A stretch of DNA of 40,423 bases from Candidatus Pyrohabitans sp. JdFR-17 (GTDB lineage: Archaea > Hydrothermarchaeota > Hydrothermarchaeia > Hydrothermarchaeales > BMS3B). Shown in pieces: positions 169 to 18,146 of this stretch. The stretch covers positions 1-40,423 of the forward strand of contig MTME02000093.1 in assembly GCA_002011115.2 (NCBI GenBank), in the 5' to 3' direction. The position numbers and the translations under genes were made by a program. Every line of letters starts with the position of its first letter. Within the stretch, counting starts at the first letter, position 1. The notes beneath the pieces were generated by a model. The model had not been told where the DNA came from. It saw only the letters and a list, made by a program, of their open reading frames with translations, and did not search any database.

Positions 169-3080
169 TGAGTAATATGGGGGATGGTGATACGTCTATA
201 TTTTTGAGTAAGGTGGGTGCAGGATCACTGAAATTGGTAATCTTTTCACTTATTGGGATATTGATTGTAACCGGGATGGTAAACGCTGCCAGCCAGGATC
301 TGACACCCGATTATATAAACAAAAATGTGGTGATCAACATATCAAAACTTGATATTATTTCCACCGGTACCAATTCAGACCTAGATAGCATAACGGTTGA
401 CATAATTGGGACCGCAACTGTTGGCAATATAACAAATGCCACACTATACAACAGTACAGGAGCTCTCTTTGGTTATAATGACACCTTTGACACCGTTCCT
501 TTTGTGATCATTAGTATAGGCACACCATGGGCGCCTGATAACTATACATTAATGTTCACAATATCTGCTAATGCAACGGATGGTGTAACCATTGGGGCAA
601 ATGTAACTGCTGTTAGTGGTACAAATGTGTCCCTTGCTGAACCGGAGGGATATTTTGCAAGTAATTTGAGCACAATCGACATAACACCGCCCACAATAAC
701 GTGGATATCTGCCAACAATTCGTGGGTGAATGAAGATTACCATGTAATTTACTTTAACGTTTCAGATTCTGGTTCAGGTGTGAATTTGTCCACGATTTCT
801 GTTACGGCGAGCAACGGTTCGATTATTTTCAGCGCAACATCCAACTGCACAGGCACAACTTCTGAGTATTCATGCAATGCCACCTGGAATACTACTGGAT
901 TGTCCGACTACGCTGGCTACACAATAACAGTCACCGCTAACGACTCAATCAGTACAGGTGGAGGTCCAGATAACCAGAACAGCAGCACAATAACGCTTAA
1001 CTTAGATAAAACTCCACCGGGTGTCGGAATAGTCTCTCCGCAAAACACTACATACAATTATGCGAACATTCTTATTAACGTCTCAGTAGTGGATGCCCTA
1101 TCAGGCGTTGACACCGTAATAGCGGAGATAAATGGAACAGATAATGTTACGCTTACGCGACAGGGCAGTTCGAACTACTGGAATTACTCCTCCTACGTAT
1201 TTAGTGATGGTAGCAACGTAGTAAGGATCTACGCCAATGACAGTGCCTCAAATCTCAATTCATCTGTGCAGGTCTACTTCACTGTAGATACCACGCCACC
1301 GACAGTGAATTATGTTGCTCCGACTCCTGTTAACAATGCAAACCTCAGCCAAGACTTTGTTTATATTAATGTCAGCGTGAGTGATGCAACAACTGCCATA
1401 GACACCTGTATTCTGGAGTTCAATGGAACTATCAACTACACAATGACCTTTGTGAATATAACTGCAGACAATAAATCAGGCTATTGCTCCTACAACGTAA
1501 CCGGCTTGAATGAGGCACAGCATAACTTCAGTGTCTATGTAAATGACACCGCAGGAAATCTTAACCGGACTTCATTGAGGTATGTGACCTTGGACGTTAC
1601 TCCACCACAGGTGACAATAAACGTTCCACAAAATAATGCCAACGTAAGCGGTACTTTAAATGTGAATGCAACAGTTATTGACAACCTGCTTGCTATAGAT
1701 ACGGTGCAGTTTAATCTTAGCAACACAACCTGGAGTAAATTGTTTGTGATGGCGAGGCAGGCTGGAACAGACTACTGGAACTATACCCTGGATACGACCA
1801 CCATACAGGACGGGGTATACAATATAACTATAAGAGCCAATGACACCGCTGGCAATGTGAACTACACCGAATATGTTACTGTTACAGTGGACAACAACGC
1901 ACCTGTTGTAACCTTCGTCTCACCAACGCCCTCCAGTGGTACGATTACAAACAAGACATATGTTTACATCAATGTCACCGTCCAAGATGTGACTACAGAT
2001 TCAGGCTTACTGGAATGGAATGGAACCATCAACTATACCATGACTAAGGTGGGGTCGACCTTCTGGTATAATAAAACTAACTTAGCTGATGGTGTCTACA
2101 CCTACAAAGTCTATGTCAACGACTCCTTTGGCAACTTCAATGTCTCAGAAACTAGAAGTATTACCATCGACACAGCCATCGTAAGTATAACCGTAGGAAA
2201 TGTCAGCACCAATGCAGCGAATAACTACACCGATAACGTAACTGCCCTAAACACTGTTATAATAGTGAACACGGGAACCACAGAAGTAAATGGTTCCATA
2301 ACAATTAATGAATACATCGACGTGCCGGTAGGTGTGAATCCACTAACCTCAGCCTATGGCTTGGAACCCTTTGAGAGGGCGATTAAACGGTATCTAAATG
2401 CAACACCAAGCGACAATCTTAATGCAACCAGCGGCAATGTCTCATGGACTATAATAAGGATGTATTACACAGATGCAGATGTTTCCGACCTAGTAGAGAG
2501 TTCATTAAGCCTATACTGGTACAACGTCACCGGAGGCAACTGGGTAAAACTAACTACCGGGCTTAACCTCACCGCCAGTGGAGGACCGTATGTTTATGAG
2601 GTGGGAGTAGATACGGCAAACAACTACGTCTGGGCAAACTTAAGCCATCTCAGTGTATATGCGATAAGTGGGGAAGTTTCTCCCTTTCAGGCAGGAGAGT
2701 ACTATCCAGAAGTAACGATCCTTGCAAATAGTATAGATGGAAAGCTTGCCGAGGAATTCATTGACTATCTAACAGATACAGGGATAGATGTTTACCTGAC
2801 AGACAATGAAACCTTCTCCAACTACAACAAGAAGAGCTATATCATTATACTTGGTGGGCCCGACGCTTACGAAGGAGTAGGTGAAATAGTTTCGCAGATA
2901 CTAACAGAGGAAGAGAAAGAGAAGATCAGACAGGAAAAGGCATGGATAAAGAAGAAGAATGTTTTCAGAAATGGACAAGTGGTACACATCCTCGCTGGAA
3001 GAGACAGGAATGCCACGGTCGAAGTATGGAGGGAATACAAGGAAGATATCAGGAAGATAATACAGTATAATCTAAATTAG
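168..3080 (+). CDS. Large secreted S-layer-like surface protein with Ig-like repeats
   Basis: A 970-residue surface protein. The N-terminal hydrophobic stretch (roughly residues 20-42, ending near VNAAS) looks like a signal peptide. It is followed by about five Ig-like repeats of about 100 residues, each opening with a D-x-TPP motif and ending in a segment such as VYVNDTAGN. N-x-S/T sequons are very dense, which implies heavy N-glycosylation. After the repeats comes a beta-rich module of the kind found before PGF-type anchors in archaeal surface proteins. The last 130 residues are different: an alpha/beta domain (IIILGGPDAYEG, then VHILAGRDRNATVE) that resembles the putative cell-wall-binding folds of S-layer proteins. 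No C-terminal transmembrane PGF anchor is seen. The start at 168 was chosen for its GAGGTG site; upstream in-frame TTG is less likely. A cell-surface structural or adhesive role is inferred. Confidence 0.8.
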   Translation: MSNMGDGDTSIFLSKVGAGSLKLVIFSLIGILIVTGMVNAASQDLTPDYINKNVVINISKLDIISTGTNSDLDSITVDIIGTATVGNITNATLYNSTGALFGYNDTFDTVPFVIISIGTPWAPDNYTLMFTISANATDGVTIGANVTAVSGTNVSLAEPEGYFASNLSTIDITPPTITWISANNSWVNEDYHVIYFNVSDSGSGVNLSTISVTASNGSIIFSATSNCTGTTSEYSCNATWNTTGLSDYAGYTITVTANDSISTGGGPDNQNSSTITLNLDKTPPGVGIVSPQNTTYNYANILINVSVVDALSGVDTVIAEINGTDNVTLTRQGSSNYWNYSSYVFSDGSNVVRIYANDSASNLNSSVQVYFTVDTTPPTVNYVAPTPVNNANLSQDFVYINVSVSDATTAIDTCILEFNGTINYTMTFVNITADNKSGYCSYNVTGLNEAQHNFSVYVNDTAGNLNRTSLRYVTLDVTPPQVTINVPQNNANVSGTLNVNATVIDNLLAIDTVQFNLSNTTWSKLFVMARQAGTDYWNYTLDTTTIQDGVYNITIRANDTAGNVNYTEYVTVTVDNNAPVVTFVSPTPSSGTITNKTYVYINVTVQDVTTDSGLLEWNGTINYTMTKVGSTFWYNKTNLADGVYTYKVYVNDSFGNFNVSETRSITIDTAIVSITVGNVSTNAANNYTDNVTALNTVIIVNTGTTEVNGSITINEYIDVPVGVNPLTSAYGLEPFERAIKRYLNATPSDNLNATSGNVSWTIIRMYYTDADVSDLVESSLSLYWYNVTGGNWVKLTTGLNLTASGGPYVYEVGVDTANNYVWANLSHLSVYAISGEVSPFQAGEYYPEVTILANSIDGKLAEEFIDYLTDTGIDVYLTDNETFSNYNKKSYIIILGGPDAYEGVGEIVSQILTEEEKEKIRQEKAWIKKKNVFRNGQVVHILAGRDRNATVEVWREYKEDIRKIIQYNLN

Positions 3081-3307
3081 ATTGAAAAGGTGTCGGTCGC
3101 TATTCTACGACCTTTTATAATCTTTAGATGGTGCTGTAAAGTTAAGGATGCTCTCATTCCCAGCAGGTTGCAGAATCTTTCGATTTCTGTTTTCCCTTCA
3201 AGTAAGTCGAGTGCTTCTCTCTGGGTTTGGTGCACTCTTACGTGATTGTAGTACAGTGTGAACAGTCGCAGAAAGTTAGCCAGGTGTTCTGAACTTGACG
3301 GCACCAC
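3077..3307 (-). pseudogene. C-terminal remnant of an integrase-core (DDE) transposase
   Basis: A 76-residue open frame containing LYYNHVRVHQTQREALDLLEG. This is the YNxxRxHQ signature found at the C-terminal end of rve-type DDE transposases (IS6/IS240, IS481 and relatives). The catalytic D-D part is missing: the frame opens only about 20 residues before the signature. The other side of the break (3317-3436, opposite strand) holds the tail of an unrelated gene. This points to an old insertion reduced by deletion. The exact IS family cannot be settled by eye. Confidence 0.6.
3095..3116 (+). terminator. Hairpin plus T-run after the surface-protein gene
   Basis: GGTCG (3095-3099) and CGACC (3108-3112) form a stem with an eight-base loop followed directly by TTTT, 15 bases after the stop codon. 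The flanking AAAAGGT/ACCTTTT can pair in an alternative fold. It fits a terminator for the surface-protein transcript. It overlaps the end of the transposase remnant on the other strand. Confidence 0.5.
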
Positions 3308-3316
3308 TCTGCTACA

Positions 3317-3436
3317 GGTAAAGCAGGAAAACTGTACTTTTTTCCCGAAGGCTACGGGTGGGTTGATGGTATTGAGGTCTTTGAAAGCGGCTGCCTTAAA
3401 ATTCTAAAGCTGAAGCTTGCAGACAAAAACCTTTAA
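3317..3436 (+). pseudogene. Orphan 3' tail of an unidentified gene
   Basis: A 39-codon frame closed by TAA reads KLYFFPEGYGWVDGIEVF and then an LKILKLKLAD-like end. It looks protein-like, with aromatic and charged residues and no early stops, but it has no start codon and begins where the transposase remnant on the other strand ends. The simplest reading is a host gene cut by insertion and deletion. I do not recognise the family. Confidence 0.4.
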
Positions 3437-16605: not shown

Positions 16606-16984
16606 GTTATCAGTCCCTCGTTTAACAGGTACTCTGGATTGGCATGTTAAAATATCTTTCTCCTGACAAAATGAAGACAATTGTGCGTAAATATTTTTCA
16701 AAATGTGATTATATCATCTACCTCAAAGGTATAACATCCCTCTCTCCGATAAACTCCAGTCCCTTTATTTTCTTATTTTCACATTTTTTTATAAAATGGA
16801 AAGGTTATCTAACTAACATATGGTGATGTACCAGCGAAGAGTTCGTTCGTGGCATGGGGTGGAGTTTGACATAAAAATTATAAATCAGAACTGGGCTAAG
16901 CTGCTAAGCCATATATCACAGTAAATTTTATTTGATGGACAGACGTGGAATAATTTTCCACTAACCCGCTGAAATTCCGCGGTT
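16606..16984. other. Gene-free AT-rich stretch before the IS110 remnant
   Basis: No credible coding frame is present. On the plus strand a TATA-like AAAAATTATAAAT lies near 16874-16886, and a hairpin GTGGAA/TTCCAC with a five-base loop lies near 16945-16961. The repeated GCTAAGC (about 16895-16910) may also fold. These could belong to the end of the insertion element or to a promoter for its RNA. The boundary of the element is not visible. Confidence 0.4.
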
Positions 16985-17039
16985 CTGATTACATGAAAGG
17001 CTCTTTTTATGCCCTGGTCGATATTTGGTTGGTGCCATG

Positions 17040-17145
17040 TCTTGGGCTGCCGTTAAGTTTACTGGTCTTAGAGACCCTGGTATTGATTCTCTGCCCGTGA
17101 CGACCGTAACCTTGGGTTTAGAGCCCTCATCGTTGTGTGTCGTTT
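17040..17145 (+). ncRNA. Candidate IS110-type bridge RNA (two guide-loop modules)
   Basis: Directly upstream of an IS110-family recombinase fragment, two consecutive modules have the same plan. Module 1 has outer stem GGGC/GCCC (17044-17047, 17093-17096), a large internal loop, and inner hairpin GGTCT-TAG-AGACC (17064-17076). Module 2 has outer stem ACGAC/GTCGT (17100-17104, 17139-17143), an internal loop, and inner hairpin GGGTT-TAG-AGCCC (17114-17126). Both inner hairpins have a 5-bp stem and the same TAG triloop, exactly 50 bases apart. IS110-group elements encode their bridge RNA in the left end upstream of the recombinase, with a target loop and then a donor loop, each a stem, internal loop and hairpin. 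The match is architectural; guide sequences cannot be verified because the right end is missing. The full RNA may begin near 16985. Confidence 0.55.
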
Positions 17146-17188
17146 GCTCAGATCTGGCATCACGACCACCTAAACAGGAGGTGATCGT

Positions 17189-17365
17189 ATATACATAGGT
17201 TCGGACGTGCATAAAAATCTGTGCTATGTCACGTTTGTCGACGAGCGTGGTGATTTTGTAGACCGGCAGAAATTTCTTCAACCTGCCGGGGATGAGAGCA
17301 TCCTTAACTTAACAGCACCCCTACAGAGCCCTTCCAATTTTAACACGTCACATTTATGGCAGTAA
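17189..17365 (+). pseudogene. N-terminal fragment of an IS110-family recombinase
   Basis: A 58-codon frame reads YIGSDVHKNLCYVTFVDERG and then DFVDRQKF. This is the start of the DEDD/RuvC-like domain of IS110 transposases, with first catalytic Asp in GSDVHK. A strong SD, GGAGGTGAT (17177-17185), lies at normal spacing, but the codon where ATG is expected (17189) is ATA. Similarity ends after about 30 residues; the remaining codons to the TAA look unrelated. The other catalytic residues and the Tnp20 domain with its serine are absent. It is therefore a dead, 3'-truncated copy whose start codon has also decayed, unless ATA is used as a start. Confidence 0.75.
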
Positions 17366-17378
17366 TCGAGGTTGTCCC

Positions 17379-18146
17379 TTGATAGCGGTGCTAACTGAGA
17401 TACCAAGGTTATACTACCTCTTTGCAAAGGAGCTGAAGCGAAAAAAACTTGAATTTTACAGCCTGACCTTCAAAGAGGAGATTCCGGGGAAGGTTAAGGT
17501 AGTGCTTACTAGCGAGTCAGAAGCAGATAAAGTTAACTTTCCCTGCGTTGTCGCCGCAACTGAGAAGAACGTGGGCATAGCGGTGGAGAAGGCATACTCC
17601 CTCTCGAGAGGGTTCAGGGAGTATTACAGCGAACTCATCATAGGCATCGACCCCGGAGAGAAGCCGGGCTTAGCGGTGGTGGGCGACGGGAGTGTTGTGC
17701 ACGTGGCTCGGCTCAACTCCCCAGAGGCTGTGAAGAGTGCCCTTGAGGATATTCTGCGTATATACTCCTGCCAGAAGGTGAGAATAAAGGTGGGCAACGG
17801 GGGTGGGGTATTCAGGCTTCGTCTGCTCAAGGTGCTGCAGGAGAGCTTCAGCTTTGATATTGAGATAGTTAATGAGCATGCTACAACGCCTTCGCTGGGC
17901 AGAGGTGACGTCCAGCCATCGATTCGTGATATCATCGCGGCGATAAACATAGCCCTGAAGCAGGGACGCAAACTGAAGGAGAGGGTGGAGATAAAGGCCA
18001 CGCTGGGTGAGATTAAAAACATACAGCGAGACAGCAGACAGCGCAGCGGGAACATAACCATCTCACGCGCCCTTGCCGAGAGGGTTGCCAAAGGCGAGCT
18101 CACAATGGAGCGAGCAATAGAGTTGCACATTCAGAGGAAAAGCTAG
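17379..18146 (+). CDS. RuvC/RNase H-fold protein of unknown function
   Basis: A 255-residue protein. Residues 1-75 form a small N-terminal region. From about residue 87, LIIGIDPGEKPGLAVVGDG matches the first strand and Asp of RuvC-like nucleases. A later NEHATTPS and DVQPSIRDIIAAINIALKQG gives a possible last catalytic Asp in a helix, as in resolvases. The basic C-terminus (RDSRQRSGNITISRALAERV) could bind nucleic acid. The TTG start has GAGGT seven bases upstream; GTG at 17388 is an alternative. It is followed after three bases by the Lhr helicase, so a joint DNA-repair or replication-restart role is likely. I do not recognise a named family. Confidence 0.65.
   Translation: MIAVLTEIPRLYYLFAKELKRKKLEFYSLTFKEEIPGKVKVVLTSESEADKVNFPCVVAATEKNVGIAVEKAYSLSRGFREYYSELIIGIDPGEKPGLAVVGDGSVVHVARLNSPEAVKSALEDILRIYSCQKVRIKVGNGGGVFRLRLLKVLQESFSFDIEIVNEHATTPSLGRGDVQPSIRDIIAAINIALKQGRKLKERVEIKATLGEIKNIQRDSRQRSGNITISRALAERVAKGELTMERAIELHIQRKS

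What the first reader, a model, noticed from the sequence alone, without database searches (positions are those of the whole stretch)
16985..17365. IS110 left end with a bridge-RNA-like double module and a decayed recombinase
Seen: two consecutive stem/internal-loop/hairpin modules (inner hairpins with 5-bp stem and identical TAG triloop, 50 bases apart; outer stems GGGC/GCCC and ACGAC/GTCGT), followed by GGAGGTGAT and a frame opening with GSDVHKN. Known: IS110-group elements carry their bridge RNA in the left end upstream of the recombinase, with a target and a donor loop. Inference: the RNA part has outlived the protein, or is kept. It may be a remnant usable in trans by a full copy elsewhere, or a fossil of a new archaeal IS110 subtype.
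Basis: partly seen in the sequence, partly recalled or inferred. Interest (0 to 1): 0.75.

Follow-up and report, generated by a model that had tools for sequence, protein, structure and literature searches.

The report
Broken jumping-gene end with guide RNA
This is the broken left end of an archaeal jumping gene (IS110 family) that still carries the decaying gene for the RNA that once guided it; it is an ordinary fossil of a known kind and shows no sign of being kept for use.

Summary
Both triloop hairpins, both outer stems and the GGAGGTGAT + GSDVHKN frame are where stated. However, the IS110 part ends near 17266, not 17365: 17267-17327 is a scrap of an IS6/IS240-like transposase, and from 17336 on the sequence is host DNA.

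The core interpretation is supported: an IS110-family left end (tip at 16985) with a two-loop guide-RNA gene upstream of a truncated recombinase. One same-phylum copy (Ca. Hydrothermarchaeum profundi) shares it at 80% over 260 bp, and is broken too. Archaeal relatives carry a homologous, covarying two-loop RNA, 3' of the gene in some and 5' in others. Three covariance models built without the window rank this stretch first, first and second in 40 kb; the best gives E = 0.11, or 0.001 within the flagged stretch. In relatives the second loop matches the element's own left end; in the window 4 of 5 bases match.

"RNA outlived the protein or is kept" is not supported. RNA and gene remnant have diverged about equally, the sister copy breaks stems without compensation, and no recombinase was found in the genome. 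Whether this lineage moved its RNA between ends cannot be settled from 26 residues.

The parts
16820..16902 (+). 5' fragment of a host ORF (MVMYQRRVRSWHGVEFDIKIINQNWAK), cut off here; intact in sister genome G001
   Evidence: 94-96% identical to G001:C8, where the ORF continues
16903..16984 (.). unassigned 82 bases between the broken host ORF and the IS110 tip
   Evidence: no match in the window or in any fetched locus except itself
16985..17008 (+). IS110 left tip: CTGATTAC outside, then ATGAAAGGCTC at the place of the subterminal repeat
   Evidence: similarity to the G012 copy starts at this base; TGATTACATGAAA is identical to the left end of a G087 element; relatives have a few variable bases and then a repeat starting ATG
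17031..17161 (+). guide (bridge/seek) RNA gene, decayed; closing stem 17031-17037 with 17155-17161
   Evidence: model R2, trained without window or G012, has its top hit at 17038-17151 +, E 0.11 over 40 kb and 0.001 over the flagged stretch
17044..17096 (+). module 1 (target-binding loop by position): stem GGGC/GCCC, inner hairpin 17064-17076
   Evidence: a TGATT before the closing strand is shared with relatives
17100..17143 (+). module 2 (donor-binding loop by position): stem ACGAC/GTCGT, inner hairpin 17114-17126, donor guide CGTAACC in its 5' strand
   Evidence: ACGAC/GTCGT also closes module 2 in L039 and L054; the guide matches its own left end at 4 of 5 bases
17163..17187 (+). hairpin CGACCACCT/AGGTGATCG holding the ribosome-binding GGAGG before the recombinase start
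   Evidence: similar hairpins with GGAGGTG occur in relatives
17189..17266 (+). remnant of the IS110 recombinase N-terminus (IYIGSDVHKNLCYVTFVDERGDFVDR), no in-frame ATG/GTG/TTG start
   Evidence: 48% identity over 29 residues to intact recombinases, E 8e-7
17267..17327 (+). scrap of the C-terminal end of an IS6/IS240-like transposase, not IS110
   Evidence: 91% over 46 bases to window 3130-3175(-); the same tail lies beside a DDE_Tnp_IS240-like ORF in L015
17336..17400 (+). host sequence in front of the ORF at 17379-18146
   Evidence: 97% to G001, 89% to G004

Best explanation
This is a dead, truncated left end of an IS110-family insertion sequence whose guide RNA gene lay 5' of the recombinase. 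Shown: the left tip, the two-module RNA fold with a closing stem, the ribosome-binding hairpin, and about 26 N-terminal residues of a DEDD-type recombinase; the rest of the recombinase and the right end are gone, replaced by an IS6/IS240-like scrap at the edge of an inversion; homologous RNAs in relatives covary as structures, and their second loop matches the element's own left end. Inferred, from IS621 and the seekRNA work: when alive, the RNA bound the recombinase, loop 1 paired with the target site and loop 2 with the joined element ends, so that the element was excised as a circle and reinserted by RNA-guided recombination. The copy seen here cannot move, and nothing suggests that it is used.
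For: Same-phylum second copy, 80% over 260 bp from the same tip. Recombinase remnant with DVHKN, E 8e-7 to intact IS110-family proteins. 3' RNAs of relatives: 9 pairs with changes on both sides against 3.1 in shuffles, 0/500. 5' RNAs of relatives: 10 against 4.8, 0/500. Model R2, which never saw the window, has its best hit in 40 kb at 17038-17151; R1 also ranks the site first and R3 second. Donor guide against own left end in relatives: 74 of 80 bases, 0/20000 shuffles. Elements with the same left-end plan: tip, ATGAAA repeat, RNA, ribosome-binding hairpin, IYIGxDVHKN. Truncation by an IS6-like scrap and host flanks at an inversion.
Against: The model hits on the window are weak (12.0 bits; E 0.11 over the whole window), R3 does not rank the site first, and the sister copy is barely recognised (3.3 bits). 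Window and sister copy show no compensatory change. The donor guide in the window is 4 of 5, which shuffled strands reach 10% of the time. No intact copy of this exact element was found, and the right end and the target cannot be checked.
Confidence: 0.87

Rival explanations
1. The RNA is still made and serves in trans a full IS110 copy elsewhere in the genome (non-autonomous but active, or kept).
For: All 26 pairs of the five RNA stems listed still form in the window copy, though those stems were read off this copy. IS copies often fall out of assemblies; the sister genome G004 has another IS110's left end only at contig ends.
Against: No recombinase domain in G000 and no second copy of this left end. 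The right end is missing, so the copy cannot move. RNA and ORF have diverged about equally.
Confidence: 0.05
2. The element belonged to the archaeal lineage whose relatives carry the RNA 3' of the gene (Hadarchaeum/Bathyarchaeota type, with subterminal repeats), and its RNA had moved to the 5' end.
For: The N-terminal remnant scores best against that lineage (87 against 73 for the 5'-RNA lineage). The left tip equals that of a G087 element with a 3' RNA. The ACGAC/GTCGT stem is shared with the 3' RNAs.
Against: Only 29 residues are compared. An archaeal lineage with 5' RNA and the same left-end plan exists, and the fragment is too short to be placed in the tree.
Confidence: 0.3
3. The double-hairpin pattern is chance folding in a stretch next to a recombinase fragment.
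For: Folding energy is ordinary (z -1.1). Two enclosed triloop hairpins occur in 16% of shuffles when the triloops may differ.
Against: Colinear model hit at the flagged place and strand (E 0.001); same architecture and position as in related elements; same-triloop pattern 0.4%.
Confidence: 0.06

Closest known systems
IS110 group with upstream bridge RNA (IS621; PMC11208160) / upstream seekRNA (ISEc21; PMC11187229)
   Same: RNA with two internal loops upstream of the recombinase; start of a DVHK-type RuvC-like recombinase; donor loop matching the element's own end in relatives
   Different: recombinase and right end lost; the left tip carries the ATGAAA start of a subterminal repeat that is long in relatives; target not recoverable
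IS1111 group (downstream RNA, subterminal inverted repeats; PMC11187229)
   Same: a few bases and then a repeat-like ATG... at the left tip; nearest N-terminal match is to archaeal elements with subterminal repeats and a 3' RNA
   Different: the RNA lies 5' of the gene; the repeat partner at the right end is missing. The paper reports some exceptions with an upstream region, e.g. ISMtsp17
5'-RNA IS110-family elements of family f72 genomes (L099, L100, L102, L104 here)
   Same: tip, ATGAAA repeat, two-loop RNA, ribosome-binding hairpin and IYIGxDVHKN in the same order and similar spacing
   Different: different guide loops, stronger stems, ORFs intact; N-terminus somewhat less similar than that of the 3'-RNA group

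Membership tests
IS110 family (broad) | N-terminal RuvC-like DEDD recombinase domain (PF01548) | tested here: inconclusive
   26-30 residues remain; no Pfam hit, but tblastn E 8e-7 to intact members
IS110 family (broad) | C-terminal domain PF02371 with SG motif | tested here: not met
   absent from the locus because the copy is truncated at 17266, and not found in the assembly; so this is a fragment, not a working member
IS110 family (broad) | structured noncoding RNA with two internal loops next to the recombinase | tested here: met
   R2 hit E 0.001 in the flagged stretch; stems listed; covariation in relatives
IS110 family (broad) | donor loop complementary to the element's own ends | tested here: inconclusive
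   relatives 0/20000 shuffles; window 4 of 5 bases, chance about 10%
IS110 family (broad) | target loop complementary to the insertion site | not testable with these tools
   right flank lost, left flank rearranged
IS110 group (as opposed to IS1111) | long noncoding region upstream of the gene | tested here: met
   about 200 bases from tip to ORF, holding the RNA
IS1111 group | subterminal inverted repeats | not testable with these tools
   right end missing; no partner of ATGAAAGGCTC found near the locus
IS1111 group | long noncoding region downstream of the gene | tested here: inconclusive
   the RNA is upstream in both known copies, but the downstream part of both is lost, so a second region there cannot be excluded

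The most novel reading that the evidence does not exclude
The Hydrothermarchaeota element may be a fossil of a lineage in which the guide RNA moved from the 3' to the 5' side while the recombinase stayed of the 3'-RNA, subterminal-repeat kind: a trace of the proposed RNA translocation between the IS110 and IS1111 groups.
Probability: 0.25. Interest if true: 0.45.

Novelty: new member of a known kind. Interest (0 to 1): 0.25.

Why it matters
As a fossil it matters little by itself. Its use is as a pointer: archaeal IS110-family elements include relatives with a homologous two-loop RNA on either side of the gene, joined by one covariance model and by left ends that covary with the donor loop. 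That makes the proposed movement of the RNA between element ends testable in archaea, with intact multi-copy elements (e.g. the three copies in G420) as experimental material.

Tried and rejected
Rfam scan of the window: only a tRNA.
PF01548 and PF02371 in the own genome: none.
Search for more copies of this exact left end: in the phylum only G012; the genome collection (30-aa query) gave Hadarchaeum, Bathyarchaeota and G012. The viral pattern scan gave three hits with no IS110 around them, rejected as chance; a viral protein scan gave nothing.
Clean empty site: not available, because the two flanks lie about 14 kb apart and inverted in G001.
Right-end search in window and G012 by the reverse complement of the left repeat: best candidates have 5 mismatches of 18, rejected.
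Target loop against left flank, by eye: no convincing match.
G017 hit with R2 (L087, 17.3 bits): its surroundings gave no recombinase match, rejected.
G004 hits (L084, L091): real left ends, but of a different IS110 subtype like G016's.
Placing the fragment in the recombinase tree: too short, not attempted beyond identity.

Full report
WHAT IS THERE. The hairpins, outer stems, ribosome-binding motif and GSDVHKN frame are present as described. There is also a third, closing stem (GGTGCCA/TGGCATC, 17031-17037 with 17155-17161) and a hairpin that holds the GGAGG motif (17163-17187). The pattern of two enclosed triloop hairpins with the same triloop is found in 0.38% of shuffles, but in 16% if the triloops may differ, and the folding energy is ordinary. 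The structure alone would not be convincing.

BOUNDARIES. A DNA search found one other copy, in G012, starting at exactly window 16985 and 80% identical over 260 bases. By contig name and length that genome is Candidatus Hydrothermarchaeum profundi JdFR-18, so the window comes from the same phylum. To the left, a host ORF that is intact in sister genome G001 is cut at 16902; 16903-16984 is unassigned. To the right, IS110 similarity ends near 17266. Bases 17267-17327 match a transposase tail at window 3121-3189(-), and the same tail lies by a DDE_Tnp_IS240-like ORF in another genome of the family (that Pfam hit is just below its cut-off). From 17336 the sequence is host. In G001 the blocks at 3426 and 17336 are neighbours, so the two transposase scraps mark the ends of an inversion of about 14 kb.

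RECOMBINASE. The remnant IYIGSDVHKNLCYVTFVDERGDFVDR is 48% identical over 29 residues to intact archaeal recombinases (E 8e-7). It lacks an in-frame ATG, GTG or TTG start, and everything after about residue 26 is gone. The G012 copy also has frame damage and ends near residue 50 (VVMEA). No PF01548 or PF02371 domain was found in the own genome. That is weak evidence of absence: the assembly is 83% complete, and the sister G004 holds left ends of another IS110 only at contig ends.

RELATIVES WITH A 3' RNA. Relatives in Hadarchaeota, Bathyarchaeota and others (L040, L041, L042, L045, L046, L039, L048, L049, L054) mostly have a left end of about 75-155 bases before the gene. Several have subterminal repeats of 12-16 bp, and a two-loop RNA lies downstream of the gene. 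Its structure covaries: 9 pairs with changes on both sides against 3.1 in shuffles, 0 of 500; sliding the partners destroys the pairing. Model R1, built from nine of these, finds the 5' RNA of L058 (34.7 bits) and hits upstream of the genes in L025, L063 and L023.

RELATIVES WITH A 5' RNA. In family f72 genomes, elements that are mostly intact carry the RNA upstream (11 of 12 loci with E of 2e-9 or better; one of them, L098, is the L058 element used in training R2). Their left end has the same plan as the window: a few bases, ATGAAA..., RNA, ribosome-binding hairpin, IYIGxDVHKN. Some have subterminal repeats of 10-14 bp. The RNA covaries: 10 pairs against 4.8, 0 of 500. Model R3, built from nine of these, recognises the 3' RNAs of the other group (E 5e-5 to 0.03), so the 5' and 3' RNAs look like one family.

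IS THE WINDOW'S RNA ONE OF THEM? Three models were used, none trained on the window or on G012. R1: best hit in the window at 17045-17126, E 2.7. R3: 17032-17167, second in the window, E 1.8. The hits are weak but land at the right place and strand each time. The E-values are rough, because calibration is shortened. The sister copy in G012 scores only 3.3 bits at the matching place, below a hit on its opposite strand.

DONOR LOOP. In relatives the 5' strand of module 2 tends to be the reverse complement of the five bases just outside the left repeat: ATGTC with GACAT, AAATC with GATTT, AGGTC with GACCT, ATTAC with GTAAT, ATTGC with GCAAT. The match is 74 of 80 bases, and none of 20000 shuffles of left ends among elements reached it. 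The strand boundaries were set by hand, and related elements are not independent. The window has ATTAC and GTAAC, 4 of 5, which shuffled strands reach in 10% of cases; G012 has 3 of 5.

IS THE RNA KEPT? Identity between window and G012 is 80% in the tip, 79% in the RNA and 75% in the ORF remnant. Of 26 RNA stem pairs that form in the window, 5 are not formed in G012, each through changes that are not compensated, and no pair has changed on both sides and stayed paired. This is what two independently decaying insertions look like, not what a retained RNA looks like.

LITERATURE. Durrant et al. (PMC11208160) place the bridge RNA in the left end of IS110-group elements and in the right end of IS1111-group elements, and propose that it moved between ends. 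Siddiquee et al. (PMC11187229) report the same division with exceptions (upstream in ISMtsp17; both sides in ISHvo10). The present case falls within that known variety.

VERDICT. A truncated IS110-family left end with a decaying 5' guide-RNA gene. A fragment of 26 residues cannot show whether the lineage itself switched the RNA's side.

Noticed in passing
window 3121-3189 (-) and 17267-17327 (+): Two inverted scraps of the same IS6/IS240-like transposase tail sit at the two ends of a ~14 kb inversion relative to sister genome G001.
   Followed up: partly
L084 (G004:C86) and L091 (G004:C4): Same-genus genome G004 has the left end and guide RNA of a different IS110 subtype (like that in G016) at two contig ends, suggesting a multi-copy element lost in assembly.
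   Followed up: partly
L041 (Ca. Hadarchaeum, DYFS01000047.1): Two different IS110-family elements (62% identical recombinases) stand head to tail, the right end of one a few tens of bases before the left end of the next.
   Followed up: no
L104, about 959-1068 (-) and 1180-1293 (+): A second guide-RNA hit on the opposite strand next to an intact element, as if two related elements were inserted back to back.
   Followed up: no
L058/L098 (G361), start of the recombinase frame: A 5'-RNA element whose recombinase lacks about its first 45 residues while the RNA and both 14-bp subterminal repeats remain.
   Followed up: partly
L099 (G420): Three identical copies of an intact 5'-RNA element with a 14-bp subterminal repeat in a one-contig genome; good experimental material.
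   Followed up: no
window 16903-16984: 82 bases between the truncated host ORF and the IS110 tip match nothing fetched.
   Followed up: partly
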